Positions 35,853 through 51,080 of a stretch of 51,080 bases of DNA are shown piece after piece. The notes under the pieces were generated by a model that saw only the letters and a program-made list of their open reading frames with translations, did not search any database and was not told the origin of the DNA. Within the stretch, counting starts at the first letter, position 1. The number at the start of each line of letters is the position of its first letter. Origin of the DNA: Lachnospiraceae bacterium (GTDB lineage: Bacteria; Bacillota; Clostridia; Lachnospirales; Lachnospiraceae); the NCBI GenBank assembly GCA_022788065.1, contig JALEWG010000173.1:1-51080 (forward strand), written 5' to 3'. The position numbers and the translations under genes were made by a program.

Positions 35853-36335
35853 ATGTTTGGATTTCTGACAGTTGGAACGACACTGACCATGCTCGATCTG
35901 GCACTTAAAAACGAGATCGAGTCACAGAAGGATGAGACATTCCCGCGGGACCTGGAGGGGACCAAAGGCATGATCCGGCTTCACAAAAACCATAATCAGG
36001 GATTTTCCTTCGGAGTTCTTGAGGGAAGCCGGGCGGTGGAACTGATTCCGCTCTGTATGACTTCGGGCCTCGCCGGTGCATGGGTCTTCCTGATGGGGAC
36101 AAAGGGAAGAATTCTGGAAAAACTTGCGGTGACGCTTTCGCTTGCGGGCGGACTCAGCAATCTGATCGACCGGATGAAGCGCGGATATGTGGTGGACTAT
36201 TTCAGCGTTCAATGGAAGACGCTGAAAAAAGTCGTGTTTAATCTGGGCGACATTTTTATTTTCTGCGGTTCGGCATTGCTTCTTGCCGCCGGGCTGATCG
36301 ATACTTTGAAAGATAACTGGAGGAACACAAAATGA
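35853..36335 (+). CDS. lspA: Signal peptidase II (LspA) family protein
   Basis: A 160-residue membrane protein with the LspA boxes: HNQGFSFG (NxGxxFG-like), GGLSNLIDRMKRGYVVDYF and VFNLGDIFIF. The two likely catalytic aspartates are Asp115 and Asp133. It would cleave lipoprotein signal peptides. The N-terminal region is less hydrophobic than usual and contains a charged segment at residues 20-45, so this may be a diverged paralogue. ATG 35853 follows AAAGGGG; the frame upstream has no RBS. Its stop overlaps the glf start (ATGA), tying it to the sugar operon. Confidence 0.75.
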   Translation: MFGFLTVGTTLTMLDLALKNEIESQKDETFPRDLEGTKGMIRLHKNHNQGFSFGVLEGSRAVELIPLCMTSGLAGAWVFLMGTKGRILEKLAVTLSLAGGLSNLIDRMKRGYVVDYFSVQWKTLKKVVFNLGDIFIFCGSALLLAAGLIDTLKDNWRNTK

Positions 36336-37438
36336 AGCAATACGATTATCTGCTCGCAGGCAGCGGCCTGTTTGCCGGCGTCTTCGCATATTATGCGAAA
36401 AAAGCCGGAAAAACATGTCTGGTCCTTGAGAAGAGAAACCATGCGGGCGGCAATGTTTACTGCGAGGAGATCGAAGGGATCAATGTGCATAAATACGGAG
36501 CCCATATATTTCATACCAGCAACCGCGAGGTCTGGGACTTCGTCAACAGCCTGGTGGAGTTCAACCGCTTTACCAACAGCCCGATTGCGAACTTTAAGGG
36601 CGAGATGTACAATATGCCCTTCAATATGAATACATTCAGCCGTATGTGGGGGATCTCGACTCCCGATGAGGCAAAGCAGATCATCAATGAGCAGCGGAAG
36701 GTGATCCGCGGAGAGCCGAAAAATCTGGAAGAGCAGGCAATCAGCCTGGTGGGAACGCATATTTACCAGAAATTAGTCAAGGGTTATACGGAAAAGCAGT
36801 GGGGAAGAGAATGTAAGGACCTTCCCGCATTTATTATCAAGCGGCTTCCCGTGCGCTATACGTACGACAACAATTATTTTAATGACCTCTATCAGGGAAT
36901 TCCCATCGGAGGCTACAATAAGATCGTGGAGAGGCTGTTCGAGGGCTGCGAGATCCGCCTGAACACGGATTACCTGGAACATAAGGACGAATACGACGCA
37001 ATGGCTGAAAAAGTGGTCTACACGGGAACCATCGACAGTTATTTCGGCTACCGGTTCGGAAAACTTGAGTACAGAAGCCTGAGATTCGAAAACGAAGTCC
37101 TTGATACGGACAATTATCAGGGCAACGCGGTCGTCAACTACACCGACCGGGAAACCCCGTATACGAGGATCATTGAACATAAGCATTTTGAGTTTGGGAC
37201 ACAGGAAAAAACGGTCATCACCAGGGAGTATCCGGCAGAATGGACCGAGGGGATGGAGCCCTACTATCCGGTCAATGATGAGAAGAATCAGGAACTGTAC
37301 CGGAAGTACGCAAAGCTTGCGGCAGAGGAGACGAATGTGATCTTCGGAGGTCGTCTGGCCGAGTACAGGTATTATGATATGGATAAAGTGATCGAGTCCG
37401 CGTTCCAGTGTGTGAAGAGGGAGTTTGGCAATGCATGA
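36332..37438 (+). CDS. glf: UDP-galactopyranose mutase
   Basis: A 368-residue flavoenzyme that converts UDP-galactopyranose to UDP-galactofuranose. The FAD-binding Rossmann start reads YLLAGSGLFAGVFAYYAKK with VLEKRNHAGGN; GAHIFHT and the later EQAISLVGTHIYQKL...YTEKQWG are UGM signatures; the end has GGRLAEYRYYDMD. It implies that the polymer made by this operon contains galactofuranose. Starts in an ATGA overlap with lspA and overlaps licD by 8 bp. Confidence 0.94.
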   Translation: MKQYDYLLAGSGLFAGVFAYYAKKAGKTCLVLEKRNHAGGNVYCEEIEGINVHKYGAHIFHTSNREVWDFVNSLVEFNRFTNSPIANFKGEMYNMPFNMNTFSRMWGISTPDEAKQIINEQRKVIRGEPKNLEEQAISLVGTHIYQKLVKGYTEKQWGRECKDLPAFIIKRLPVRYTYDNNYFNDLYQGIPIGGYNKIVERLFEGCEIRLNTDYLEHKDEYDAMAEKVVYTGTIDSYFGYRFGKLEYRSLRFENEVLDTDNYQGNAVVNYTDRETPYTRIIEHKHFEFGTQEKTVITREYPAEWTEGMEPYYPVNDEKNQELYRKYAKLAAEETNVIFGGRLAEYRYYDMDKVIESAFQCVKREFGNA

Positions 37439-38294
37439 TTTTTACGAGCCCGATGTGCTGAAAGAGCTGCAGGCCACGGAACTCTCCATGCTGAAGGATT
37501 TTATGGAGCTGTGTGACCGGCACGGGCTGATCTATTTCGGCATCGGAGGCACGGGGATCGGAGCGCTGCGTCATCAGGGATTCATCCCGTGGGACGATGA
37601 TATCGATATCGCTATGCCGAGAAAGGACTTTGAAGCTTTTCTGCGGCTGGCCGGACGGGAATGGAAGGGAAAATACTATATTCTGAACAATAAGACAAAC
37701 GAAAATTATCCGATGATGACAACGCGCCTCTGTAAATGCGGCACCGTGTTCCAGGAGGCGGTCATGAAGGATGTGGATTGTCCGTTCGGAATCTTTCTGG
37801 ATCTCTATGTGATGGACAATATTGCGGACGGAAAGATCGCGGTCCGGATCCAGGCGTGGTCCGCCTGGTTCTGGAGCAAGCTTTTAGTGTTATCCTGCAT
37901 GGAAAAGCCGTATCTGGCGCAGACCGGCTGGAAAGCAAAGGTGATCTGGGCTGTCTGCAGCGCGGTCCACAAAACGATCCGCGCGCTCCATATCCGCCCG
38001 GCTATCTTCCGCGCCCACTGCGAGGCGGCGTGCCGGAAATATGAGCGGGTCGAGACTAAGCGGATGGCATTCCTGCCGGACACCAATCCGTTCTGGAATG
38101 TGGTGAATAAGGAAAAAATGTTCCCGATTCGGAAGCTTCCCTATGAGGACACGTTTATGGCCTTCACCAGTGATATCGATGAGATTATGAGAAGCCAGTA
38201 CGGCGACTATATGGTGATGCCGCCGGAGGACAAACGAAAGACCCACTACCCGTACCGCCTGCAGTTTAGGGAGGGCGAGGACGCCCAGGTATAG
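37431..38294 (+). CDS. LicD-family phosphotransferase
   Basis: A 287-residue LicD/fukutin-type enzyme, with GTGIGALRHQGFIPWDDDID and MPRKDFEAF holding the metal-binding aspartates. LicD enzymes move phosphocholine or a similar phospho-alcohol from CDP to glycans. The aminotransferase and LicC-like gene just downstream would make the activated donor. ATG 37431 has GGGAG 7 bases upstream and overlaps the end of glf; TTG 37425 is a less likely start. The acceptor glycan and the head group are unknown. Confidence 0.85.
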   Translation: MHDFYEPDVLKELQATELSMLKDFMELCDRHGLIYFGIGGTGIGALRHQGFIPWDDDIDIAMPRKDFEAFLRLAGREWKGKYYILNNKTNENYPMMTTRLCKCGTVFQEAVMKDVDCPFGIFLDLYVMDNIADGKIAVRIQAWSAWFWSKLLVLSCMEKPYLAQTGWKAKVIWAVCSAVHKTIRALHIRPAIFRAHCEAACRKYERVETKRMAFLPDTNPFWNVVNKEKMFPIRKLPYEDTFMAFTSDIDEIMRSQYGDYMVMPPEDKRKTHYPYRLQFREGEDAQV

Positions 38295-38323
38295 CGGGCA
38301 GCGGGAAAAGAGGAGAATGAAAC

Positions 38324-39379
38324 ATGTGCTATGTGAAAGAATGCGTCAGGGACATCGTGCGGATCGGCGGACGCCAGGGACGCGCGGATTTCCTGCGCCT
38401 TGATATGAATGAGAATCCGGAGGGACTTCCGGAGGAGTTCGTGGAGAAGGTGAAGGCGGAACTTACGCCGGCATTTTTCGCCACTTATCCGGAACCGGAA
38501 AAATTCCTCGGGATTCTGGCCGATTACCTCGGGGTGAACCGGGAAAATGTGTGTGTCACAAACGGGTCGGACATGGCGATCCGGTATCTGTTTGAGGTGT
38601 TCGGCCGCCCAGGCTCCTCAGTCGTGACCGTATCGCCGACTTTTGAGATGTACCGGATCAACTGCCTGATCTTCGGACTGAATCACAAGCCGGTGCTCTA
38701 CAATCCGGATTTCTCGCTGGATTTTGACCGGGTTCTCGATGCGATCACAGAGGAGGTCAGCATCGTATCGGTCCTGAATCCGAATAATCCCATCGGAACC
38801 GTGTATACGGAAGAACAGTTTGACGCCATCGCAAAAAAAGCGGCTGATGTGGGCGCGCTTGTGATCGTGGACGAGGCGTATCATTATTTTTACGATAAGA
38901 CTTTTTTAAATAAGATTTCCGAGTATGATAACGTGGTGCTGATCCGGACGTTCTCCAAGCTGTTTTCTGTGGCGGCGGTCCGTCTGGGCTTCATCGTCGG
39001 AAATGCGAAGCTCATCCGGTACGTCTGGAATGTGCGTCCCACCTTTGACACCAATGCCGTTGCCCTGAAATTCGGGGAAAAGCTGCTCACGGAGCCGGGA
39101 CTCTGCGAAAAGCTGGTGGCTATCGAAAAAGAGGGAAGAGCGTACCTGACGGAAAGCCTCAGGGAACACGGATACGAGTATTTGGCTGAGAACGGTAACT
39201 ATGCGTTTATTAAGACGAAGACGCCGGTTTTGCAGGTGAAGGAGCGTCTGGAAGAAAAGAAGATCCTGATCAAAACCTATGGGCAGGAGATGTTAAAGGA
39301 TTATATCCGGATCTCCACGGGAAGCATAAAGGTAATGAAGCAGTTTACGGACGCGCTCTATGAAGTCGATGTGAGGTAA
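38324..39379 (+). CDS. HisC/CobD-like PLP aminotransferase or decarboxylase
   Basis: A 351-residue fold-type I PLP enzyme. Cofactor motifs: LDMNENPEGLP at the N terminus, VTNGSDMAIRYLF, LNPNNPIGT, VDEAYHYF and RTFSKLFSVAAVRLGF, whose Lys forms the Schiff base. The nearest well-known types are histidinol-phosphate aminotransferase and the threonine-phosphate decarboxylase CobD. No other histidine genes are near; lying between licD and a LicC-like gene, it more likely makes or modifies an amino-alcohol or amino-phosphonate head group. The start is preceded by AAAGAGGAG. Confidence 0.8.
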   Translation: MCYVKECVRDIVRIGGRQGRADFLRLDMNENPEGLPEEFVEKVKAELTPAFFATYPEPEKFLGILADYLGVNRENVCVTNGSDMAIRYLFEVFGRPGSSVVTVSPTFEMYRINCLIFGLNHKPVLYNPDFSLDFDRVLDAITEEVSIVSVLNPNNPIGTVYTEEQFDAIAKKAADVGALVIVDEAYHYFYDKTFLNKISEYDNVVLIRTFSKLFSVAAVRLGFIVGNAKLIRYVWNVRPTFDTNAVALKFGEKLLTEPGLCEKLVAIEKEGRAYLTESLREHGYEYLAENGNYAFIKTKTPVLQVKERLEEKKILIKTYGQEMLKDYIRISTGSIKVMKQFTDALYEVDVR

Positions 39380-39383
39380 AAGG

Positions 39384-40136
39384 ATGAAAGCATTTATTCT
39401 GGCAGCCGGAAAAGGCAGCCGAATCAGCAAATATCTCCCGAATATCCCGAAATGTACTGTGGATGTGGGCGGACAGCCGTTGATCCGGCAGACTGTGGAG
39501 ATGCTGCTCAATAACGGAATTGATCCGACGGTCATTGTCGGCTATCGCCATGCGGAGATCGAACGGGTTCTTCTGGGACTTCCGGTCCACATCGTATATA
39601 ACCCGTTCTATGATGTGACCAACAGCATCGGTTCCCTCTGGATGGCGGAAAACGCCGGGCTTTTTACGGAGGAGGACTGTATCGTCGCCAACGGCGACGT
39701 GTACTGGAGCCAGGGGATCCTGGATTTTGTGCTGGCACAGAAGGAGGAGATCATTCTTCTGGCGGATTCCGCCAGAGTGCTTGATGGGGACTATTTCTTC
39801 GGCACGGAAAACGGAATGCTGCGCCGGTACGGAAAAGAACTCACTCTGGAAGAGCGGGACTGTGAATACACGGGGATCGCGGCCATGAAGGCTTCCTTCG
39901 TGCCGCGGTTTCTGGCACGTCTCAACAGCCTGATCGACTCCCAGTGCCACGGAAAGTGGTGGGAGGATGCGATCTACAGTCTGAGCAGTGAGGAAGATAT
40001 CCCTGTGAAAGACATCAGGGGACAGTTCTGGGCAGAGGTGGACTTTATCGAAGATTACCGCCGGATCCTGGACTATGTATCGGAAAAGACAGGAATTAAG
40101 ACAAATGGAAGCATTATTACACCTGATCATCGGTAA
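39384..40136 (+). CDS. LicC-like nucleotidyltransferase
   Basis: A 250-residue sugar-nucleotidyltransferase-fold protein: LAAGKGSRISKYLPNIPKC binds the nucleotide, ANGDVYWS gives the metal Asp, and WWEDAIYSL and WAEVDFIEDY match LicC/choline-phosphate cytidylyltransferases. It should activate a phospho-alcohol with CTP, giving the CDP donor for the LicD two genes upstream. Same arrangement (aminotransferase next to LicC-like enzyme) is seen where phosphonates are activated. Starts 4 bp after the aminotransferase stop; the flippase gene overlaps its end by 32 bp. Confidence 0.85.
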   Translation: MKAFILAAGKGSRISKYLPNIPKCTVDVGGQPLIRQTVEMLLNNGIDPTVIVGYRHAEIERVLLGLPVHIVYNPFYDVTNSIGSLWMAENAGLFTEEDCIVANGDVYWSQGILDFVLAQKEEIILLADSARVLDGDYFFGTENGMLRRYGKELTLEERDCEYTGIAAMKASFVPRFLARLNSLIDSQCHGKWWEDAIYSLSSEEDIPVKDIRGQFWAEVDFIEDYRRILDYVSEKTGIKTNGSIITPDHR

Positions 40137-43157: not shown

Positions 43158-43841
43158 ATGTCGGACTTGCTGATTATTATTCCTGCATATAACGAGGAAG
43201 ACAATATCGAACGGGTGGTGGACCGCCTGACTGCGTCATTTCCGCAGTACGACTATGTGGTGGTCAATGACGGGTCACGGGATTCAACCGGCGAGATCTG
43301 CAGAAGACGCGGATATAATTTCCTGGATCTGCCGGTGAACCTGGGTCTCGCCGGAGGGTTTCAGGCCGGGATCCGCTACGCGTACGCGAAAGGCTATGCC
43401 TGCGCCATACAGATCGACGGGGACGGGCAGCACCGGCCGGAATTCATTGCCGACATGAAGAAAAAGATGGAAGAGGGATACGATATTGTGATCGGATCCC
43501 GGTTTGTCCATGAGAAGAAACCAAAGTCCATGCGGATGCTTGGGAGCAATCTGATCGAGTTCGCGATCCGGCTGACCACGGGGAAGGTGATCAAGGACCC
43601 GACCTCCGGGATGCGGCTTTTCAACCGGAAGATGATCCGGGAATTCGCGAAAGGACTGAACTTTGGGCCTGAGCCTGACACGATCTCCTACCTGTTAAAA
43701 CAGGGAGCCAGTGTGGCGGAGGTTCCGGTCGTCATGGATGAGAGAACGAAGGGAGTCAGCTATCTGACGCCGGTCAATGCGGCCAGATATATGATCCAGA
43801 TGCTGGTCTCCATTCTGTTTATCCAGAATTTCAGAAAGTGA
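43158..43841 (+). CDS. DPM1/polyprenyl-phosphate-type GT2
   Basis: A 227-residue single-domain GT2, with LLIIIPAYNEEDNIERVV at the start, VVNDGSRDST, IDGDGQHRPEFI (metal DxD) and DPTSGMRLFN. These are the features of dolichol-/polyprenyl-phosphate glycosyltransferases, which make lipid-phosphate sugars for use outside the membrane. It has no membrane helices of its own. The next two genes, DUF2304 and DUF2142, are membrane proteins and probably its partners. Confidence 0.87.
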   Translation: MSDLLIIIPAYNEEDNIERVVDRLTASFPQYDYVVVNDGSRDSTGEICRRRGYNFLDLPVNLGLAGGFQAGIRYAYAKGYACAIQIDGDGQHRPEFIADMKKKMEEGYDIVIGSRFVHEKKPKSMRMLGSNLIEFAIRLTTGKVIKDPTSGMRLFNRKMIREFAKGLNFGPEPDTISYLLKQGASVAEVPVVMDERTKGVSYLTPVNAARYMIQMLVSILFIQNFRK

Positions 43842-43854
43842 GGACAGAGGTCAT

Positions 43855-44232
43855 ATGACAATGCAGCTTCGAATGGTTTTGATCGTGGTTTCGGTGGTCA
43901 CCACCTGGCTGATTCTCAGGAAGATCCGGATGTCGAAAATGCGGATCGAGGATTCCATTTTCTGGATCGGATTTTCGCTGATGCTGATCGTGTTCAGCGT
44001 ATTTCCGGAGATCGTGTACTGGATGTCCGATCTGTCGGGAACCCAGACGCCGGTCAACTTTATTTTCCTGTTCATGATCTTTGTGCTGATCCTGCGCATG
44101 TTCCGCCTCACCGTTAAGATCTCCCAGCTGGAGACGAAGGTGCGGGATCTGACGCAGCGGATCGCCATCGATGAAAACCTGAAAAACGGAGACAGGGAAA
44201 ATAAGAGACCGAAGGAAGTGACAGAAGAATGA
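43855..44232 (+). CDS. DUF2304 small membrane protein
   Basis: A 125-residue protein with three hydrophobic segments (about residues 5-22, 38-58, 65-83) and a charged C-terminal helix starting VKISQLETKVRDLTQR. This is the DUF2304 family, commonly next to polyprenyl-phosphate GT2 genes and presumed to help them at the membrane or flip the lipid-linked sugar. AGAGG lies 4 bases before ATG. Its stop overlaps the next start as ATGA (44229-44232). Confidence 0.85.
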   Translation: MTMQLRMVLIVVSVVTTWLILRKIRMSKMRIEDSIFWIGFSLMLIVFSVFPEIVYWMSDLSGTQTPVNFIFLFMIFVLILRMFRLTVKISQLETKVRDLTQRIAIDENLKNGDRENKRPKEVTEE

Positions 44233-45821
44233 AACGACTGATATCATACATGGGACCGGGAATCATGGTCCTTTTTGTAATCCTGGGAGGAGGCTGGCAC
44301 TTCCTTCAGACGAGAGCGGGAGCGCTCGGAGCCGGTGAACTCTGGCTCTGCGACCTCTATCTTGTGCTGGCAGCGCTTGCGGCAGGTCTGCTCCTGTTTC
44401 TGACCTTTTCTCTTTTTATAAAGAAGCTTAAGACGGAGCTCTGCGCAGGCATAACGGTTCTGGTCCTGGGGATCCTTTATATGACCGCTCTGCCGCCCGT
44501 TTCCGCGCCGGACGAGATCTCCCATTTTGTGAGCGCGTACGCCGTCTCCAACCGGATCCTCGGGGAAATGCCGGTGGACGCGGAGGGAAATGTGCGGATG
44601 CGAAAGGAGGACGAATACCTCCAGAATATATACGGCGCGTCGGGGGATGAAGCGAGGGAATCTCTGGGACGGGTGCTCACCGAGGAGACCTGGAAGCAGA
44701 TCGCGGAGCATATATCGCCTGTTTTTGTTCCGGCAGAGCAGAGGATCATGGTATCTTCCGTACAGAAGCCGGTGAACACGACGCCTGCGGCATATCTGGC
44801 GCCGGCTCTCGGGATCACGCTCGGGAGGCTCCTTCATGTAAATTGTGTGATCGTCGCTTTCCTGGCACGACTCTTTAACCTTCTGTTTTTTGCGGCGATG
44901 GTGTGTTTCAGTATCCGGGTCCTGCCCTTTGGAAAACAGATCCTCTGGGGCGTGTCGCTGCTTCCCATGACGCTCCATCTTGCGGCATCCTGCTCCTACG
45001 ATACTTTTTTGATGGGGACCTGCTTCCTTTTCGGAAGCTACGCGCTGTATCTGGCTTACGCAAAGCCCATGGTGCAGAAGCGGGATATCGCGGTGCTTGT
45101 GGTACTCGCCGCGGCATTCGGGCCGTGCAAGATGGTCTACGCGGTCGTGCTGGGCATGGCGCTCCTCATTCCCGTAAAAAAATTCGGGGACTGGAAAAAC
45201 TGGGCGCTGTCCGCGGGAACCGTTCTTCTGGCGTTCGCGCTTGCGATGATCGCAGTGAACAGCGGGACGATCGCAACCTACGCCTCCGGTTCCGACACGT
45301 ACGTGGCCTGGGCCGGTGAAGAGGGCTTCAGCATTCCGCTGCTCCTCCACAATCCGGTGCTCTGCTTCCGTATGCTCTATGAGTCACTGGCAAATCTCGG
45401 AGATGAATGGACGCTGCAGATGTTCGGAAGTGTTCTCGGAAATCTGGATCCGGTCCTCTCGGTTCCGTTCGTTGTACTTTTATTTATGGCGGGGTGCCTG
45501 ACAGCGCTGGGGATCCGGAAGGCCGGGGAGGCACTGTATCTCGGCGGGAAACAAAAAGCGTGGATCGTCTTTCTGGCGGCGGTCTGTCTGATCGGTCTGA
45601 TGACAGCCATGCTGGTGGCCTGGACTCCCATGAGTTCGCCCGTCATCGAGGGCGTACAGGGAAGGTATCTGCTCCCGGTGCTCCCGTTTGTCTTCATGAC
45701 GTTAAAGAGCGACCGGCTGGTGCGGGTCGCAGGGAGCGATGAAACGCTGATCTTTTACATGTGCGCGCTGGACTGTTACACGGTTTTCAGGTTATTTAGT
45801 ATTGTCAGCATGAGATTGTAG
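44229..45821 (+). CDS. DUF2142 polytopic membrane protein (GT-C-like)
   Basis: A 530-residue membrane protein with about 12 hydrophobic segments. After two N-terminal helices it has the family signature PPVSAPDEISHFVSAYA in an external loop, where the Asp-Glu pair corresponds to the catalytic acid of GT-C enzymes. DUF2142 proteins are thought to transfer sugars from polyprenyl-phosphate donors to glycans outside the cell. With the GT2 and DUF2304 genes just upstream it forms a complete three-gene side-branch glycosylation set. Its product may decorate the operon's polymer. Confidence 0.83.
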   Translation: MKRLISYMGPGIMVLFVILGGGWHFLQTRAGALGAGELWLCDLYLVLAALAAGLLLFLTFSLFIKKLKTELCAGITVLVLGILYMTALPPVSAPDEISHFVSAYAVSNRILGEMPVDAEGNVRMRKEDEYLQNIYGASGDEARESLGRVLTEETWKQIAEHISPVFVPAEQRIMVSSVQKPVNTTPAAYLAPALGITLGRLLHVNCVIVAFLARLFNLLFFAAMVCFSIRVLPFGKQILWGVSLLPMTLHLAASCSYDTFLMGTCFLFGSYALYLAYAKPMVQKRDIAVLVVLAAAFGPCKMVYAVVLGMALLIPVKKFGDWKNWALSAGTVLLAFALAMIAVNSGTIATYASGSDTYVAWAGEEGFSIPLLLHNPVLCFRMLYESLANLGDEWTLQMFGSVLGNLDPVLSVPFVVLLFMAGCLTALGIRKAGEALYLGGKQKAWIVFLAAVCLIGLMTAMLVAWTPMSSPVIEGVQGRYLLPVLPFVFMTLKSDRLVRVAGSDETLIFYMCALDCYTVFRLFSIVSMRL

Positions 45822-45911: not shown

Positions 45912-46490
45912 ATGGGTAAAATTAAAGTAACTCCCTGCGAGACAGAGGGAAAAGTAATCGAAGGACTTTATGTGATCGAACCGACCGTGTTTAAGGATGA
46001 GCGCGGCTATTTTATGGAAACCTACAACCAGAACGATTTTAAGGAAGCCGGACTCGATATGGTATTCGTGCAGGACAATCAGTCCATGTCCGTAAAGGGC
46101 GTACTGCGTGGCCTGCATTTCCAGAAGCAGTATCCGCAGGGCAAGCTGGTGCGCGCCGTGCGCGGTACCGTATTTGACGTGGCTGTGGATCTGAGGACCC
46201 ATTCCGCAACCTACGGAAAGTGGTACGGTGTGGAGCTCTCCGCTGAGAATAAGAAGCAGTTCTACATTCCGGAGGGCTTTGCCCACGGTTTCCTGGTGCT
46301 GTCCGACGAGGCCGAATTTGCGTACAAGTGCACGGACTTCTATCATCCGGGCGACGAGGGCGGCCTGTTATGGTCCGATGAGACCATCGGCGTAAAGTGG
46401 CCGATCGAGGAGGGAATGGAACTGATCATTTCCGAGAAAGATAAAAAATGGGGCGGCTTTCACGACACCTTTAAATTTGAGAACAAGTAA
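45912..46490 (+). CDS. rfbC: dTDP-4-dehydrorhamnose 3,5-epimerase
   Basis: A 192-residue RmlC cupin epimerase of the dTDP-L-rhamnose pathway. Signatures are FKDERGYFMETYN, VKGVLRGLHFQKQYPQGKLV (catalytic His in LRGLHFQ) and FYIPEGFAHGFLVL. rfbA, rfbB and rfbD are not in the window and must lie elsewhere or downstream. ATG 45912 follows GAGGGA; the ATG at 45864 is in the 90-bp intergenic region, which holds a GGCAGA/TCTGCC hairpin. Confidence 0.94.
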   Translation: MGKIKVTPCETEGKVIEGLYVIEPTVFKDERGYFMETYNQNDFKEAGLDMVFVQDNQSMSVKGVLRGLHFQKQYPQGKLVRAVRGTVFDVAVDLRTHSATYGKWYGVELSAENKKQFYIPEGFAHGFLVLSDEAEFAYKCTDFYHPGDEGGLLWSDETIGVKWPIEEGMELIISEKDKKWGGFHDTFKFENK

Positions 46491-46512: not shown

Positions 46513-47331
46513 GTGAATTATGTAGTTTCTCTTATCAAAGAACTGGTGACGAAACGCAGGCTCGTGTGGGATCTGGCCAAAGCCGATTTTAAAAAGCGGT
46601 TTGTGGGATCCTATTTCGGCATTGTCTGGATGTTTGTCCAACCGATCGTGACGGTTCTGATCTACTGGCTGATCTTCGGACCCATCGGCTTTAAGAGCGC
46701 GCCGCCGGTTCCGAACGCATCCTACGTCCAGTGGCTGATTCCCGGCATTGCGCCGTGGTTCTTCTTTTCCGAAGCGTTGAACTGCGGGACCGGCTGTCTT
46801 CAGGAATACAATTATCTCGTGAAAAAAGTGGTGTTCCGGGTGGAAATTCTGCCGGTGATCAAGCTGATCTCCTGCCTGTTTGTCCACGGATTCTTTGTGC
46901 TGATCATGTTCGCGGTATTCCTGATCAGCGGAAAGACGCCGCAGATCTCCTGGCTCCAGGTAATCTACTATGCGTTTGCGGCTTCCATGCTGGCGCTGGC
47001 GATCACGTATCTGACAAGTGCGATCCAGGTGTTTTTTAAGGATATGGCACAGATCGTGAGCATCTGCCTGCAGTTCGGCATGTGGCTGACTCCGATCATG
47101 TACAGCGAGCAGCTTTTTGTGGACAAGGGGCTCACGATGGCTCCCACCATCCTCAAGCTGAACCCGTTTTACTATATTGCGGCCGGTTACCGCGACAGCA
47201 TGCTGACAGGGGACTGGTTCTTTATGCGTCCGACGCTGACCGTTTATTTCTGGGCGGTGACGATCGTGATCATGCTTGTGGGCCTTAAGGTATTCAAGCG
47301 GCTGCGTCCGCATTTTTCTGATGTTTTGTAA
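46513..47331 (+). CDS. Wzm-type ABC-2 polysaccharide export permease
   Basis: A 272-residue membrane protein of the ABC-2 polysaccharide exporter family: an amphipathic N-terminal helix with RRLVWDLAKADFKKRFVGSY, six membrane helices, and QFGMWLTPIMYS plus LKLNPFYYIAAGYRD near the end, characteristic of TagG/Wzm. With the following ATPase it would export a completed lipid-linked polymer. Start is GTG 46513 with AGAGAGG about 12 bases upstream, a long spacing; the next in-frame Met comes much later. Confidence 0.9.
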   Translation: MNYVVSLIKELVTKRRLVWDLAKADFKKRFVGSYFGIVWMFVQPIVTVLIYWLIFGPIGFKSAPPVPNASYVQWLIPGIAPWFFFSEALNCGTGCLQEYNYLVKKVVFRVEILPVIKLISCLFVHGFFVLIMFAVFLISGKTPQISWLQVIYYAFAASMLALAITYLTSAIQVFFKDMAQIVSICLQFGMWLTPIMYSEQLFVDKGLTMAPTILKLNPFYYIAAGYRDSMLTGDWFFMRPTLTVYFWAVTIVIMLVGLKVFKRLRPHFSDVL

Positions 47332-47344
47332 ACAGGAGGGACAG

Positions 47345-48676
47345 ATGGCCGTAAATGCGATTGAAGTAAAAGACGTGACAAAGGTGTACAGGCTGTACGA
47401 CAAGCCCATTGACAGGCTAAAGGAGTCACTCAGCCTGACCCATAAAAATTATCACCGGGATTTTTATGCGTTAAAAGGACTGTCCTTCCATGTGGAAAAA
47501 GGGCAGACCGTGGGCATTATCGGAACCAACGGATCCGGAAAATCCACGATCTTAAAGATCATCACCGGTGTTCTGACTCCCACCTCCGGAGAAGTGAAGG
47601 TGGAGGGAAAGATCTCCGCGCTTCTGGAGCTGGGTGCCGGATTTAACATGGATTACACGGGAATAGAAAATATCTATATGAACGGTACCATGATGGGGTT
47701 CACAAAGAAGGAGATGGACGAGAAACTCCAGGATATCCTGGATTTCGCGGAGATCGGAGACTTTGTGTACCAGCCGGTGAAGACGTACTCCAGCGGTATG
47801 TTCGTCCGCCTGGCATTCGCCCTCGCAATCAACGTGGAGCCGGAGATCCTGATCGTCGATGAGGCGCTGTCCGTGGGTGACGTGTTCTTCCAGTCCAAAT
47901 GCTACCGCAGGATGGAGGAGATCCGCAAGAGCGGAACGACGATTCTCATGGTGACCCACGATATGGGAAGCATTATCAAGTACTGCGACAAGGTGGTCCT
48001 GCTCAATAAAGGCGAGTTTATCGCCGAGGGTGAGGCTGGAAGAATGGTGGATCTTTATAAGAAGATTCTGGCCAACCAGATGGATTCTCTGAAGGAGGAG
48101 CTGGAAAACGATTTCTCAGGCGGGATGGATCTGGACGGAACAGACGACGCTTCAAAGAAACCGAAGGAAAACGGCGCGGATCCCGGTCATGGCCTCATGA
48201 AGGACAAGATCACGATCAATGCCAACCGGACCGAGTACGGGGACGGACGGGCCGAGATCTTCGATCTGGGCCTTTATGATGCCAGAGGAAACCTGACCAA
48301 CCTGCTGTTAAAGGGCGAGATGTTCACAATCAAAGAGCGGATCCGCTTCCATGCGCCGCTCCAGTGCCCGATCTTTACGTATACGATCAAGGACAAAAAG
48401 GGAACGGACCTTTCCGGAACCAATACCATGTACGAGGGTGCGGATATCAAACCGGTGAAGGCGGGGGACGTCTATGACGTTTCCTTCACCCAGAAAATGA
48501 CACTGCAGGGCGGTGAGTACCTGCTCTCCATGAGCTGCACCGGCTTTGAGGAGGGAGAGCATGTGGTGTACCACAGACTGTACGATGTGGCCAACATTAC
48601 GGTGATCTCCAACAAAAATACCGTCGGCGTTTATGACATGGAATCGGAAGTGGAGACGACGCTGACAAGAGCATAG
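47345..48676 (+). CDS. Wzt-type ABC ATPase with C-terminal substrate-recognition domain
   Basis: A 443-residue ATPase. The first ~250 residues form the nucleotide-binding domain: Walker A GTNGSGKST, the Q-loop region ELGAGFNMDYTGIENIY, signature YSSGM, Walker B ILIVDEALSVGD. A linker rich in charged residues leads to a ~150-residue beta-sandwich-like C-terminal domain of the Wzt_C type, beginning about DKITINANRTEYG. In E. coli O8/O9a and Raoultella O12, such domains bind the modified chain end as a signal for export. ATG 47345 directly follows AGGAGGGAC; the longer frame lies in wzm. Confidence 0.9.
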   Translation: MAVNAIEVKDVTKVYRLYDKPIDRLKESLSLTHKNYHRDFYALKGLSFHVEKGQTVGIIGTNGSGKSTILKIITGVLTPTSGEVKVEGKISALLELGAGFNMDYTGIENIYMNGTMMGFTKKEMDEKLQDILDFAEIGDFVYQPVKTYSSGMFVRLAFALAINVEPEILIVDEALSVGDVFFQSKCYRRMEEIRKSGTTILMVTHDMGSIIKYCDKVVLLNKGEFIAEGEAGRMVDLYKKILANQMDSLKEELENDFSGGMDLDGTDDASKKPKENGADPGHGLMKDKITINANRTEYGDGRAEIFDLGLYDARGNLTNLLLKGEMFTIKERIRFHAPLQCPIFTYTIKDKKGTDLSGTNTMYEGADIKPVKAGDVYDVSFTQKMTLQGGEYLLSMSCTGFEEGEHVVYHRLYDVANITVISNKNTVGVYDMESEVETTLTRA

Positions 48677-48691
48677 ACCGGGAGATGTAAA

Positions 48692-49558
48692 ATGAACGAT
48701 TTTAGTTATGAGATTCTGGATCTGCTGAAAAAGTACGAGAATGATACGAATGCGGCACTGGCGGGCGAAACATGCCCGCAGTGCCTTTATGCGTTTTCCC
48801 CTCTCCGGGAAAACCTGTTTGAATGGGTGGAATTTGAGCCGGATTCCAGAGTGCTGGAGATCGGATCCGACTACGGCGCGGTTACGGGTATTCTGGCAAA
48901 GCGGGCCGGTCAGGTGGTCGTTCTGGATCCGCGTGATGAGAATCTGGAGGTCAACCGGATCCGCCACGGCTCGATCGGCAATATCCGGTATGTGAGCGGA
49001 GACCTTCTTCACACCGCAAATCCGCTGGCGGGAACAGGTTTTAAGGAGTATCGGCCGAAAATGGATACCGGGGAGACGGCGGAGGATCTGATGAAAACGC
49101 CGTTTGACTATGTGGTGATCGGGAGCTTTCTGGAACTTCAGTCAAAGGAGGAGGCCGTGAGACTTCTCCGTATGGCTGCGGATCTTGTAAAACCGGGCGG
49201 TACACTGTTTGCTGCCGCCGAGAACGAGCTGGGCGTCCGCTACTGGATGGGGGCGGAGCGTCTGACTCCGTCTTTCCTGGAGGTCGAATTCCGGGAACTG
49301 TTTGAAGCGCTCAGGGCGGAACATGGAGGATCCTTTACCATGTACTATCCGGTTCCGGACTATCGGTATCCGGTAACGGTCTACTCCGATCATTACCTTC
49401 CTCAGACCGGCGATGTGACAAACATTTCCGCCCGGTTAGACGGGCCCGGGTTCTGGTTCGGCAGCGAGGAGGAGGCCATGGCAAAGGCGTGCCGGAACGG
49501 ATCCTTTACAAAATTTGCAAATTCATTCCTCGGGGTCTGGGAGAAAGGAACGCTATGA
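48692..49558 (+). CDS. SAM-dependent methyltransferase
   Basis: A 288-residue class I methyltransferase: motif I VLEIGSDYGAVTGILAKRAGQ, acidic strand VVVLDPRDEN, and a motif IV-like FDYVVIGSFLE, then the post-core ELGVRYWMG. The preceding ~35 residues form a helical cap. Its position between Wzt and the kinase-like/GT protein suggests it methylates the glycan or its terminal phosphate. GGGAG lies upstream of the ATG. Stop and next start overlap as ATGA. Confidence 0.82.
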   Translation: MNDFSYEILDLLKKYENDTNAALAGETCPQCLYAFSPLRENLFEWVEFEPDSRVLEIGSDYGAVTGILAKRAGQVVVLDPRDENLEVNRIRHGSIGNIRYVSGDLLHTANPLAGTGFKEYRPKMDTGETAEDLMKTPFDYVVIGSFLELQSKEEAVRLLRMAADLVKPGGTLFAAAENELGVRYWMGAERLTPSFLEVEFRELFEALRAEHGGSFTMYYPVPDYRYPVTVYSDHYLPQTGDVTNISARLDGPGFWFGSEEEAMAKACRNGSFTKFANSFLGVWEKGTL

Positions 49559-51080
49559 GACAGATCGAGTATGTAAAATATAACCGAACAAGAGCGGAAA
49601 AGTTTCAGCTTAAGACGGTGATCGTCCGCGAAAACGGCGTGCTTTCCGTGGAGAAGACGGCTCTCTCGGAGGCAGGAGAGGCACATATCCGCTCTTTTGA
49701 AACAAAATATGAAAAAATAAGCGGGTCAAATCCGCAGATCCGGTTTTTAAAACCGGAATTTCTCCCCGGCGGGAAGGCGGTCCGGTTTGAATACCTGACC
49801 GGTGAGACCATCGGCGATGTGCTGGGGGAAAAGATCCGGCTGGGCGAGGTTCCATACAAAGAACTGACAGAGGCTATGACGCTTGTGTTCCCGGAGGACT
49901 TTTCGGATGCGGGATCTTCGCGGAAAGAAGAGCGGTTTGTGCCGGGAGAAGAGTTTCGGGACGTGTTCGGCGACGTGCCGGAGATGACAGACCGGATCGT
50001 ACAGGTCTCCAACGTGGATGGCCTGTTTGAAAACCTGATGATCTCGGATGGGACCGTTTACGGCATCGATTACGAGTGGGTGTTCGATTTCCCGATTCCG
50101 GCGAAGTTCCTCCACTTCCGGAACCTGCTCTATTTTTACCGCAGATATGAAAATATCTTAAACTGCAGGCAGGAGGAAATCTTTGCGTATTACGGCATTG
50201 ACGGAGAACTTCAGAAGATATTTTTCTCCATGGAGGAGGCGTTCCAGTCCTACGTCCACGGGGAGGGCCATTTCCAGTACATGAAGCAGTATGAGCAGCC
50301 GGCGAAGACGCTGGAGTTTCTGCTGGACAGAGAGAGTGAACTTTACAAGGTGAAAGACTGGTGCGAGGCCTTAAAGCAGGAGATCGCCGAGAAGGATGTG
50401 ACGATCGTCAAGCAGCAGGAGGTACAGCGCCTGACGAACAACCATGTGGCAAACCTGGACGTGATCATCGCGGACCTGCGCCGGGAAAATGCGGAGATCG
50501 CGAAGACACTGCAGTATCTGTCGAAACATGAGGCCATGATCTGGAAGGTGCTCAGAAAGTGCCACCAGGCGGTCAACAAGGTTCTCCCGAAGGGGACCAG
50601 AAAGAGAAAAGTACTTACTTACTTTAAGAATACGATGTTCCATCCGGGAAAATACGGAAAACTCTACCTTACGGCTGAGGGCCGCAACCGGATCCGCGGC
50701 GATTTTAAGATCGGTGAGGGGTATCTGGAGCACGGCAAAGTGAAGCTTCCGTATTTTGAAAATCCCACCGTCTCTATTGTGATTCCGGTCTACAACCAGA
50801 TTCACTACACGTACGCCTGCCTCCTGTCCATTCTGGAGAACACGCAGGACGTGTCCTATGAGGTGATCATTGCCGACGATGTGTCCACGGACGCCACGAA
50901 GGAGCTGGACCGCTACGCGGAGAATGTGGTGATCTGCCGGAATCATACGAATCAGGGCTTCTTAAGAAACTGCAACAACGCGGCGAAGGCGGCCCGCGGT
51001 AAATACGTCATGTTCTTAAACAACGACACCCAGGTGACGCCGGGCTGGCTTTCCGCTCTCGTGAACCTGATCGAGTCCGA
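49555..51080 (+). CDS. Kinase-like / coiled-coil / GT2 protein (3' end beyond window)
   Basis: The frame stays open to the window edge, giving 508 residues of a longer protein. Residues ~1-190 resemble the aminoglycoside-phosphotransferase/LPS-kinase fold: NVDGLFENLMI (153-163) fits the catalytic HxDxxxxN with His changed to Asn, and IDYEW (171-175) fits the metal-binding Asp. Residues ~255-345 look like a coiled coil. A GT2 domain starts at about 403 with TVSIVIPVYNQ, then IADDVSTDAT and MFLNNDTQV. The start overlaps the methyltransferase stop (ATGA). The end and any further GT domains are outside the window. Confidence 0.8.
   Translation, partial: MRQIEYVKYNRTRAEKFQLKTVIVRENGVLSVEKTALSEAGEAHIRSFETKYEKISGSNPQIRFLKPEFLPGGKAVRFEYLTGETIGDVLGEKIRLGEVPYKELTEAMTLVFPEDFSDAGSSRKEERFVPGEEFRDVFGDVPEMTDRIVQVSNVDGLFENLMISDGTVYGIDYEWVFDFPIPAKFLHFRNLLYFYRRYENILNCRQEEIFAYYGIDGELQKIFFSMEEAFQSYVHGEGHFQYMKQYEQPAKTLEFLLDRESELYKVKDWCEALKQEIAEKDVTIVKQQEVQRLTNNHVANLDVIIADLRRENAEIAKTLQYLSKHEAMIWKVLRKCHQAVNKVLPKGTRKRKVLTYFKNTMFHPGKYGKLYLTAEGRNRIRGDFKIGEGYLEHGKVKLPYFENPTVSIVIPVYNQIHYTYACLLSILENTQDVSYEVIIADDVSTDATKELDRYAENVVICRNHTNQGFLRNCNNAAKAARGKYVMFLNNDTQVTPGWLSALVNLIES

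What the first reader, a model, noticed from the sequence alone, without database searches (positions are those of the whole stretch)
46513..51080. WbdD-like chain-cap module split over separate genes in a Firmicute export operon
Wzm, Wzt with a C-terminal recognition domain, a methyltransferase and a protein with a kinase-like domain plus coiled coil are consecutive. In E. coli O8/O9a, WbdD joins a methyltransferase, a kinase and a coiled-coil length ruler to cap the O-antigen end, and Wzt_C reads the cap. Here the same parts seem present, but the methyltransferase is separate and the kinase-like domain is fused to a GT2. The kinase motif (NVDGLFENLM, IDYEW) is read from sequence; the comparison is inference.
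Basis: partly seen in the sequence, partly recalled or inferred. Interest (0 to 1): 0.72.

Follow-up and report, generated by a model that had tools for sequence, protein, structure and literature searches.

The report
Clostridial glycan-capping kinase and methyltransferase
Beside the genes of a sugar-polymer exporter, a Lachnospiraceae-type bacterium carries a methyltransferase gene and a gene for an unannotated protein with a predicted kinase fold, a likely coiled coil and a sugar-transferase domain, which together would likely stop the growing polymer with a methyl-phosphate cap that the exporter is predicted to recognise.

The parts
46513..47331 (+). Wzm, permease of the polysaccharide exporter (GTG start)
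   Evidence: Pfam ABC2_membrane E 4.2e-10; a Wzm match lies in 20 of 26 loci and 39 of 80 (my ORF caller often prefers a longer antisense ORF there)
47345..48676 (+). Wzt: ATPase plus C-terminal recognition domain (Wzt_C, about 48227-48640)
   Evidence: Pfam Wzt_C E 1.5e-41; C-terminal domain matches E. coli O9a Wzt-C 2r5o E 5.8e-6
48575..48577 (+). Arg411 codon of Wzt: column of A. aeolicus Trp362; predicted cap-phosphate contact
   Evidence: Arg in 34 of 34 kinase-linked Wzt, 0 of 17 others
48692..49558 (+). class I SAM-dependent methyltransferase, separate gene
49555..49558 (+). ATGA overlap of MTase stop and kinase start
   Evidence: sequence; 14 of 51 split relatives have the same 4-nt overlap, 41 of 51 overlap by 4, 8 or 14 nt
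49555..50290 (+). kinase domain (K34 49654-49656, D155 50017-50019, N160 50032-50034, D172 50068-50070)
   Evidence: AF2 and fold search; conserved residues; hhalign to O7-type kinase
50302..50586 (+). long helix, predicted coiled coil (residues 250-344)
   Evidence: AF2 helix at model positions 254-299; no Pro or Gly in 250-344; heptad test 19 of 500
50773..51080 (+). start of GT2 domain, cut by the contig end; the relative L032 continues with the rest of GT2 and a group 1 glycosyltransferase domain
   Evidence: Pfam Glycos_transf_2 E 9e-25; L032

Best explanation
The four genes would likely form one termination-and-export unit of the type described for the Klebsiella pneumoniae O7 antigen: the kinase domain is predicted to phosphorylate the non-reducing end of a lipid-linked polymer, the methyltransferase would then methylate that phosphate, and the Wzt C-terminal domain is predicted to read the cap so that only finished chains are exported. 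The coiled coil would hold the capping site at a set distance from the transferase domains of the same protein, so chain length would be set by a ruler. The ATGA overlap likely keeps the split MTase and kinase in balanced supply. Shown here: the genes, the predicted folds, the homologies, the linkage and the Arg signature. Inferred: substrate, order of reactions, methyl-phosphate as the cap, cap recognition by Arg411, and the ruler.
For: Predicted kinase fold nearest to APH, with AmiN among the rows; AmiN is the closest fold reported for the O7 kinase (PMC11231755). Kinase profile against the proteobacterial O7-type domain: probability 97.7 to 98.1; MTase against MTase 100; four crossed controls at most 0.2. 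The Pseudomonas stand-in has Y28, Y66, G91, G93, E112 and Y158 at exactly the numbers reported for O7 ORF6, with its motif Asp at 443 against O7 D441. MTase and kinase are one protein in 29 of 80 related loci. A segment after the kinase in 18 clostridial members matches the corresponding segment of the stand-ins (probability 95.5), where the paper describes an Ig-like domain; the window lacks it. All 27 genomes with the high-scoring Wzt_C subtype have the kinase (24, 3 more), 26 of 27 in the fetched neighbourhood; 0 of 17 examined lower-scoring Wzt_C loci do. That subtype's profile fits E. coli O9a Wzt (63 bits) better than A. aeolicus (49), the other subtype the reverse (41 against 83). Arg at the Trp362 column: 34 of 34 against 0 of 17; E. 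coli O9 Arg, O8 Trp; in the partly overlapping 80-locus set 75 of 76 readable Wzt (the 76th is a gap), and the unlinked Wzt of G034 too. The two family members without the catalytic Asp, L050 and L051, come from the two kinase genomes in which no Wzt_C was found. In Clostridia a phosphate cap has been seen chemically: 2,3-cyclophosphoryl-rhamnose ends a C. difficile Ox247 S-layer glycan whose locus holds an ABC transporter (PMC6254364).
Against: The O7 ORF6 sequence itself was never in hand; the tie runs through stand-ins. The polymer is unknown. The HxD histidine is Asn in the window and Asn or Asp in relatives (14 and 13 of 27); the stand-ins lack it too. K34 is Arg in the Pseudomonas stand-in, and D172 is Glu in the Citrobacter one (sequences). 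Motif I acid of the MTase is Gln in 61 of 76 (Glu in the window), and two fused relatives have no Pfam MTase match (L043, L047), so the cap need not be methylated everywhere. The C. difficile cap is a cyclic phosphate, not methyl-phosphate, and no kinase gene was shown there. The coiled coil test is weak (19 of 500). The 120-bit line between Wzt_C subtypes was drawn after seeing the table (121.0 above, 114.7 below). Arg-type domains are related by descent, so 34 of 34 is not 34 independent events; kinase-linked and O7-type domains are not one clade in the free tree, though this is not rejected. In G034 the kinase is not near the Wzt; L047, L050, L051 and L194 show no complete exporter beside the kinase.
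Confidence: 0.74

Rival explanations
1. It is a split WbdD: the MTase and the kinase belong to the E. coli O9a WbdD family.
For: Same order of parts and same neighbour Wzt; the WbdD MTase half gives a moderate hhalign probability of 82.5 to the clostridial MTase profile; the Wzt C-terminal domain is nearest to O9a in the PDB.
Against: WbdD kinase (single sequence) against the clostridial kinase profile: probability 2.9; against the proteobacterial O7-type profile 18.6, over 19 columns; no hmmsearch match worth the name. WbdD has HDDVRPWN and DFG, the window NVDGLFEN and DYEW. WbdD is not among the 50 fold rows shown, which is inconclusive.
Confidence: 0.07
2. Kinase and MTase act separately: the cap is a bare or cyclic phosphate (as in the C. 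difficile S-layer glycan), and the MTase methylates a sugar hydroxyl or is dying.
For: C. difficile Ox247 ends in 2,3-cyclophosphoryl-rhamnose (PMC6254364); motif I acid is Gln in 61 of 76 MTases; no Pfam MTase match in L043 and L047.
Against: An MTase match lies in 76 of 80 kinase loci and 9 of 10, and its glycines are kept (73 and 75 of 76). In O7 the pair makes methyl-phosphate in vitro (PMC11231755).
Confidence: 0.14
3. The kinase-like domain is a catalytically dead structural part that only binds the glycan, and only methylation caps the chain.
For: The HxD histidine is absent; no annotated kinase matches by sequence; two of 27 members lack the catalytic Asp.
Against: K34 and D172 are kept in 27 of 27, N160 in 26 and D155 in 25 of 27 aligned members; the corresponding Asp (D441) is essential in O7 (PMC11231755).
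Confidence: 0.05

Closest known systems
K. pneumoniae O7 terminator ORF6-N (PMC11231755; part 1 of section 11 and search passages, which include parts of the abstract, read)
   Same: MTase, unannotated kinase of APH/AmiN-like fold, coiled coil, C-terminal GT2; ABC-transporter-dependent pathway; conserved Asp and MTase residues (through stand-ins)
   Different: Window MTase is a separate gene; no Ig-like domain after the kinase; second transferase is of group 1 in the relative L032 instead of a second GT2; Clostridia host
E. coli O9a WbdD (PMC3482155, passages read; sequence from E. coli HS, L207)
   Same: Works alike: kinase plus MTase cap read by Wzt, with a coiled-coil spacer
   Different: Kinase of another sequence family; WbdD is one protein and has no glycosyltransferase domain
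Geobacillus S-layer WsaE (PMC2943079, passages read)
   Same: Firmicute terminator with an MTase in front of two transferase domains; cluster with wzm and wzt
   Different: No kinase described in the passages; cap is 2-O-methyl
C. difficile Ox247 S-layer glycan locus (PMC6254364; sections 5, 12, 14 and search passages read)
   Same: Clostridia; ABC transporter genes in the locus; phosphate on the terminal rhamnose
   Different: Capping gene not identified in what I read (the words kinase and methyltransferase do not occur in its main text); locus sequence not available here

Membership tests
O7-type MTase-kinase terminator | MTase domain homologous to O7 ORF6-N | tested here: met
   hhalign probability 100, E 4.5e-39, to a Pseudomonas/Citrobacter profile; stand-ins identified by residue numbers, O7 itself not held
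O7-type MTase-kinase terminator | unannotated APH/AmiN-like kinase homologous to O7 ORF6-N | tested here: met
O7-type MTase-kinase terminator | coiled coil between catalytic and transferase domains | tested here: inconclusive
   helix at model positions 254-299, Pro/Gly-free 250-344, heptad test 19 of 500
O7-type MTase-kinase terminator | phosphorylates, then methylates, the chain end | not testable with these tools
   needs enzyme assay or NMR
WbdD (E. coli O9a) | kinase of the WbdD sequence family | tested here: not met
   hhalign probability 2.9 with a single WbdD sequence; no usable hmmsearch match; different motifs
WbdD (E. coli O9a) | WbdD kinase fold | tested here: inconclusive
   not among the 50 rows shown
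Wzt with recognition domain (PF14524) | Wzt_C domain over the curated cut-off | tested here: met
   142.2 bits against cut-off 30.4
WsaE-type terminator | MTase in front of transferases, without a kinase | tested here: not met
   the window has a predicted kinase domain and a separate MTase gene; the no-kinase feature of WsaE is taken from passages of PMC2943079, its sequence was not examined

The most novel reading that the evidence does not exclude
Many Clostridia finish their ABC-exported surface glycans with a phosphate-based cap made by an overlooked kinase family, and a single residue of Wzt (Arg for phosphoryl caps, an aromatic residue for methyl caps, Gln for Kdo) tells from sequence which cap an exporter reads.
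Probability: 0.45. Interest if true: 0.8.

Novelty: new variant of a known kind. Interest (0 to 1): 0.62.

Why it matters
Length control and quality control of Gram-positive surface glycans exported by Wzm-Wzt are little understood. This would give Clostridia, including gut Lachnospiraceae and solvent-producing Clostridium, a defined cap, a kinase family to name and a readable recognition code, and it offers a candidate enzyme class for the unexplained phosphate cap of the C. difficile S-layer glycan.

Tried and rejected
Sequence searches for the kinase in PDB, Pfam and NCBIfam found nothing usable; the xylanase and JAK1 rows (E about 1) I take as noise. WbdD is absent from the 50 structure rows; this proves nothing. 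The MTase fold search lists generic class I MTases in its 50 rows and does not separate O7, CgnL or WbdD; the profile search likewise. The last protein search (56 hits) was aimed partly at C. difficile; no row named it, so that link stays open. E. coli had no DNA match to the Citrobacter terminator. Searches for a Clostridium bolteae polysaccharide showed nothing on its cap in the listings (listings only). The ten paper searches listed no paper that I recognise as describing this terminator in Firmicutes; some listings were cut (15 of 36), the library lacks most subscription journals, and the Glycobiology paper cited as reference 23 of PMC11231755 is not held.

The idea that the Wzt_C domain follows the kinase more closely than the ATPase domain does rests on one locus (L153 beside L039 in the ATPase tree). 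A tree with the 34 kinase-linked ATPase domains as one clade is not rejected (AU p 0.183), so I do not claim it. A phosphonate route for the LicD, nucleotidyltransferase and aminotransferase genes upstream is not supported: no PEP mutase match in the held 89%-complete genome.

Rows dropped: A1 uses 23 of 27 kinase sequences (L037 partly masked; L050, L051, L053 left out as divergent; L050 and L051 differ at the catalytic Asp); A2 uses 63 of 77 and A3 62 of 75 relatives (mostly close copies thinned by hand); 17 of 20 lower-scoring Wzt_C rows were examined, and L147, L148 and L156 end near the Wzt, so a kinase beyond the contig end could be missed. L126 is counted as split only because its locus starts inside the gene, and L061 and L113 run off their contigs; these add noise to 51 against 29. 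L047, L194, L050 and L051 hold the kinase without a complete neighbouring Wzt, and the Wzt ORF of L197 is short (244 residues). Labels recalled and from no call: GT-B, the Kdo product of GT99 enzymes, the serotypes and accession numbers of E. coli HS and IAI1 (their Wzt are annotated as O9 and O8 family).

Full report
WHAT IS THERE. The nearest kinase genes come from a Lachnospiraceae MAG and a Clostridium sp. MAG (L058, L059), whose contigs have the lengths of those of two genomes listed as of the same family (G048, G019). Four genes run in one direction to the contig end: Wzm, Wzt with a Wzt_C domain, a class I MTase, and a protein whose only Pfam domain over its cut-off is a GT2 at residue 407 onward. 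The MTase stop and the next start overlap as ATGA at 49555-49558. References that begin at 49552 in my calls carry one extra leading Ala; residue numbers here count Met at 49555 as 1, model positions are one higher.

RELATIVES. The kinase occurs in 26 of 98 held genomes, the window's own included; three more were found later with the family profile. It occurs in 25 of 391 genomes drawn across the class, in seven family codes, 14 of the 25 in the window's own family. Of the 80 loci kept, 51 are split as in the window and 29 carry MTase and kinase in one protein, usually about 1,300 residues with the transferase domains behind. The trait needs six changes on the kinase tree, at least four forced by well-supported branches. 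In 41 of the 51 split loci the two genes overlap by 4, 8 or 14 nt. The distance from kinase to GT2 is nearly constant: 159-165 residues in 45 of 49 measured split proteins and 159-180 in 27 of 27 measured fused ones. This fits a ruler, but the region is also conserved in sequence, so it is weak evidence. Standalone copies are called hypothetical protein in C. beijerinckii, C. butyricum, C. neonatale and C. weizhouense.

WHICH KNOWN KIND. A protein search of plasmids with a fused relative hit one record, a Citrobacter braakii cluster with rhamnose genes, where a 649-residue MTase protein follows Wzt (22% identity, E 3e-6). A Pseudomonas plasmid protein of 1,457 residues is its relative (42.7% over 85%). 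The Pseudomonas protein has Y28, Y66, G91, G93, E112 and Y158, the very residue numbers given for the SAM site of K. pneumoniae O7 ORF6, and its motif Asp is at 443 against the essential D441. I take these as O7-type stand-ins. Profile comparison joins the clostridial MTase (100) and kinase (97.7 to 98.1) to them, with four crossed controls at 0.2 or less. A segment after the kinase in 18 clostridial members also matches theirs (95.5), where the paper describes an Ig-like fold; the window and the Citrobacter protein lack it. The WbdD of E. coli HS (708 residues, L207) does not match the clostridial kinase profile (probability 2.9; 18.6 to the proteobacterial profile over 19 columns; its MTase half reaches 82.5), with the caveat that it is a single sequence. 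The published O7 work shows phosphate and methyl-phosphate products at O-3 of the terminal rhamnose in vitro, no product with D441A, and non-exported polymer in cells with D441A (PMC11231755). It names orthologues in alpha- and gammaproteobacteria and cyanobacteria; the words Gram-positive and Firmicutes do not occur in its main text.

THE EXPORTER READS THE CAP. Of 47 Wzt_C rows in the 98 genomes, 27 score 120 bits or more; I drew that line after seeing the table. All 27 genomes have the kinase: 24 and three more (G022, G031, G037) when the family profile was used on the neighbourhood. In 26 of 27 it lies in the fetched neighbourhood of that Wzt; in G034 it lies on another contig, yet that Wzt too has the Arg. 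Of the 20 lower rows I examined 17, and 0 of 17 have the kinase in the fetched stretch. On a tree the 34 kinase-linked recognition domains form one clade (89/95); together with the two O7-type ones they do not, but that is not rejected (AU p 0.567). Against the PDB their profile prefers E. coli O9a Wzt (63 bits) to A. aeolicus Wzt (49 bits), and the other subtype does the reverse (41 against 83 bits). A. aeolicus Trp362 stacks on the 3-O-methyl cap (PMC9445017, passages). At that column the kinase-linked domains have Arg in 34 of 34; the unlinked ones are Tyr 11, Trp 3, Phe 2 and one other in 17. In the 80-locus set, which overlaps a few of the 34, 76 complete Wzt could be read: 75 have Arg and one a gap. 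E. coli O9 and three O7-type proteobacterial loci have Arg; O8, A. aeolicus and two further E. coli loci (L204, L206) have Trp; two GT99 loci have Gln; one E. coli plasmid locus with a sulfotransferase-headed protein has Arg, on a long branch. On the domain tree O9 falls with the O7 type (89/76) and O8 with A. aeolicus (97/80), with the column itself left out. These sequences are related by descent, so the signature is a strong hypothesis and not a proof of contact.

HOW IT LIKELY WORKS. The polymer would grow on a lipid carrier in the cytoplasm. When the end reaches past the helix, the kinase would phosphorylate it, the MTase would add a methyl group to the phosphate, growth would stop, and the Arg-type Wzt domain would accept the chain for export. 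The neighbours fit a rhamnose-containing polymer (RmlC at 45912-46490) with a UDP-galactopyranose mutase gene nearby (36332-37438). Whether the glycan ends on the cell wall or on a protein is unknown; the held genome has one LytR-CpsA-Psr match elsewhere.

CHEMICAL PRECEDENT. The C. difficile Ox247 S-layer glycan ends in 2,3-cyclophosphoryl-rhamnose; its authors compared this with O9 and named no capping gene in the sections I read (PMC6254364). This shows that phosphate caps exist in Clostridia. It also warns that the cap need not be methyl-phosphate.

LIMITS. The last gene is cut by the contig end, the O7 sequence was not in hand, no polymer from this organism is known, and all enzyme steps are inferred.

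Noticed in passing
window 37425-40136: LicD, a class I/II aminotransferase and a MobA-like nucleotidyltransferase in a row, a likely phosphocholine-type decoration module; no PEP mutase match in the held genome argues against a phosphonate.
   Followed up: partly
window 43158-45821: A polyprenyl-phosphate-type GT2, a DUF2304 protein and a DUF2142 membrane protein in a row, which looks like a multi-part system that adds a sugar outside the membrane.
   Followed up: no
L201 9220-14583 (E. coli plasmid pKTa005_1): The protein after Wzt starts with a sulfotransferase domain and ends in glycosyltransferases, a candidate sulfate-capping terminator; its Wzt has Arg at the cap column.
   Followed up: partly
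L204 8455-10572 (E. coli ECCRA-119; most of the 40 listed rows match the same way): A 705-residue protein without a Pfam match at E 1e-4 sits right after Wzt in a rhamnosyltransferase cluster, possibly another kind of terminator; its Wzt has Trp.
   Followed up: no
L203 8199-12038 (E. coli YZ22PE244 chromosome): An E. coli chromosome carries an O7-type MTase-kinase protein with two GT2 stretches beside Wzt.
   Followed up: partly
L043 9841-11238 and L047 8761-10686: Fused relatives whose MTase part has no Pfam MTase match while the kinase motif is kept, so the cap there may be phosphate alone.
   Followed up: no
L050 14429-17959 and L051 460-3702: Family members without the catalytic Asp, from the two kinase genomes in which no Wzt_C was found; perhaps a dead or repurposed branch.
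   Followed up: partly
L194 9366-10553: A kinase-domain protein with no Wzm, Wzt or MTase match nearby, perhaps with another role.
   Followed up: no
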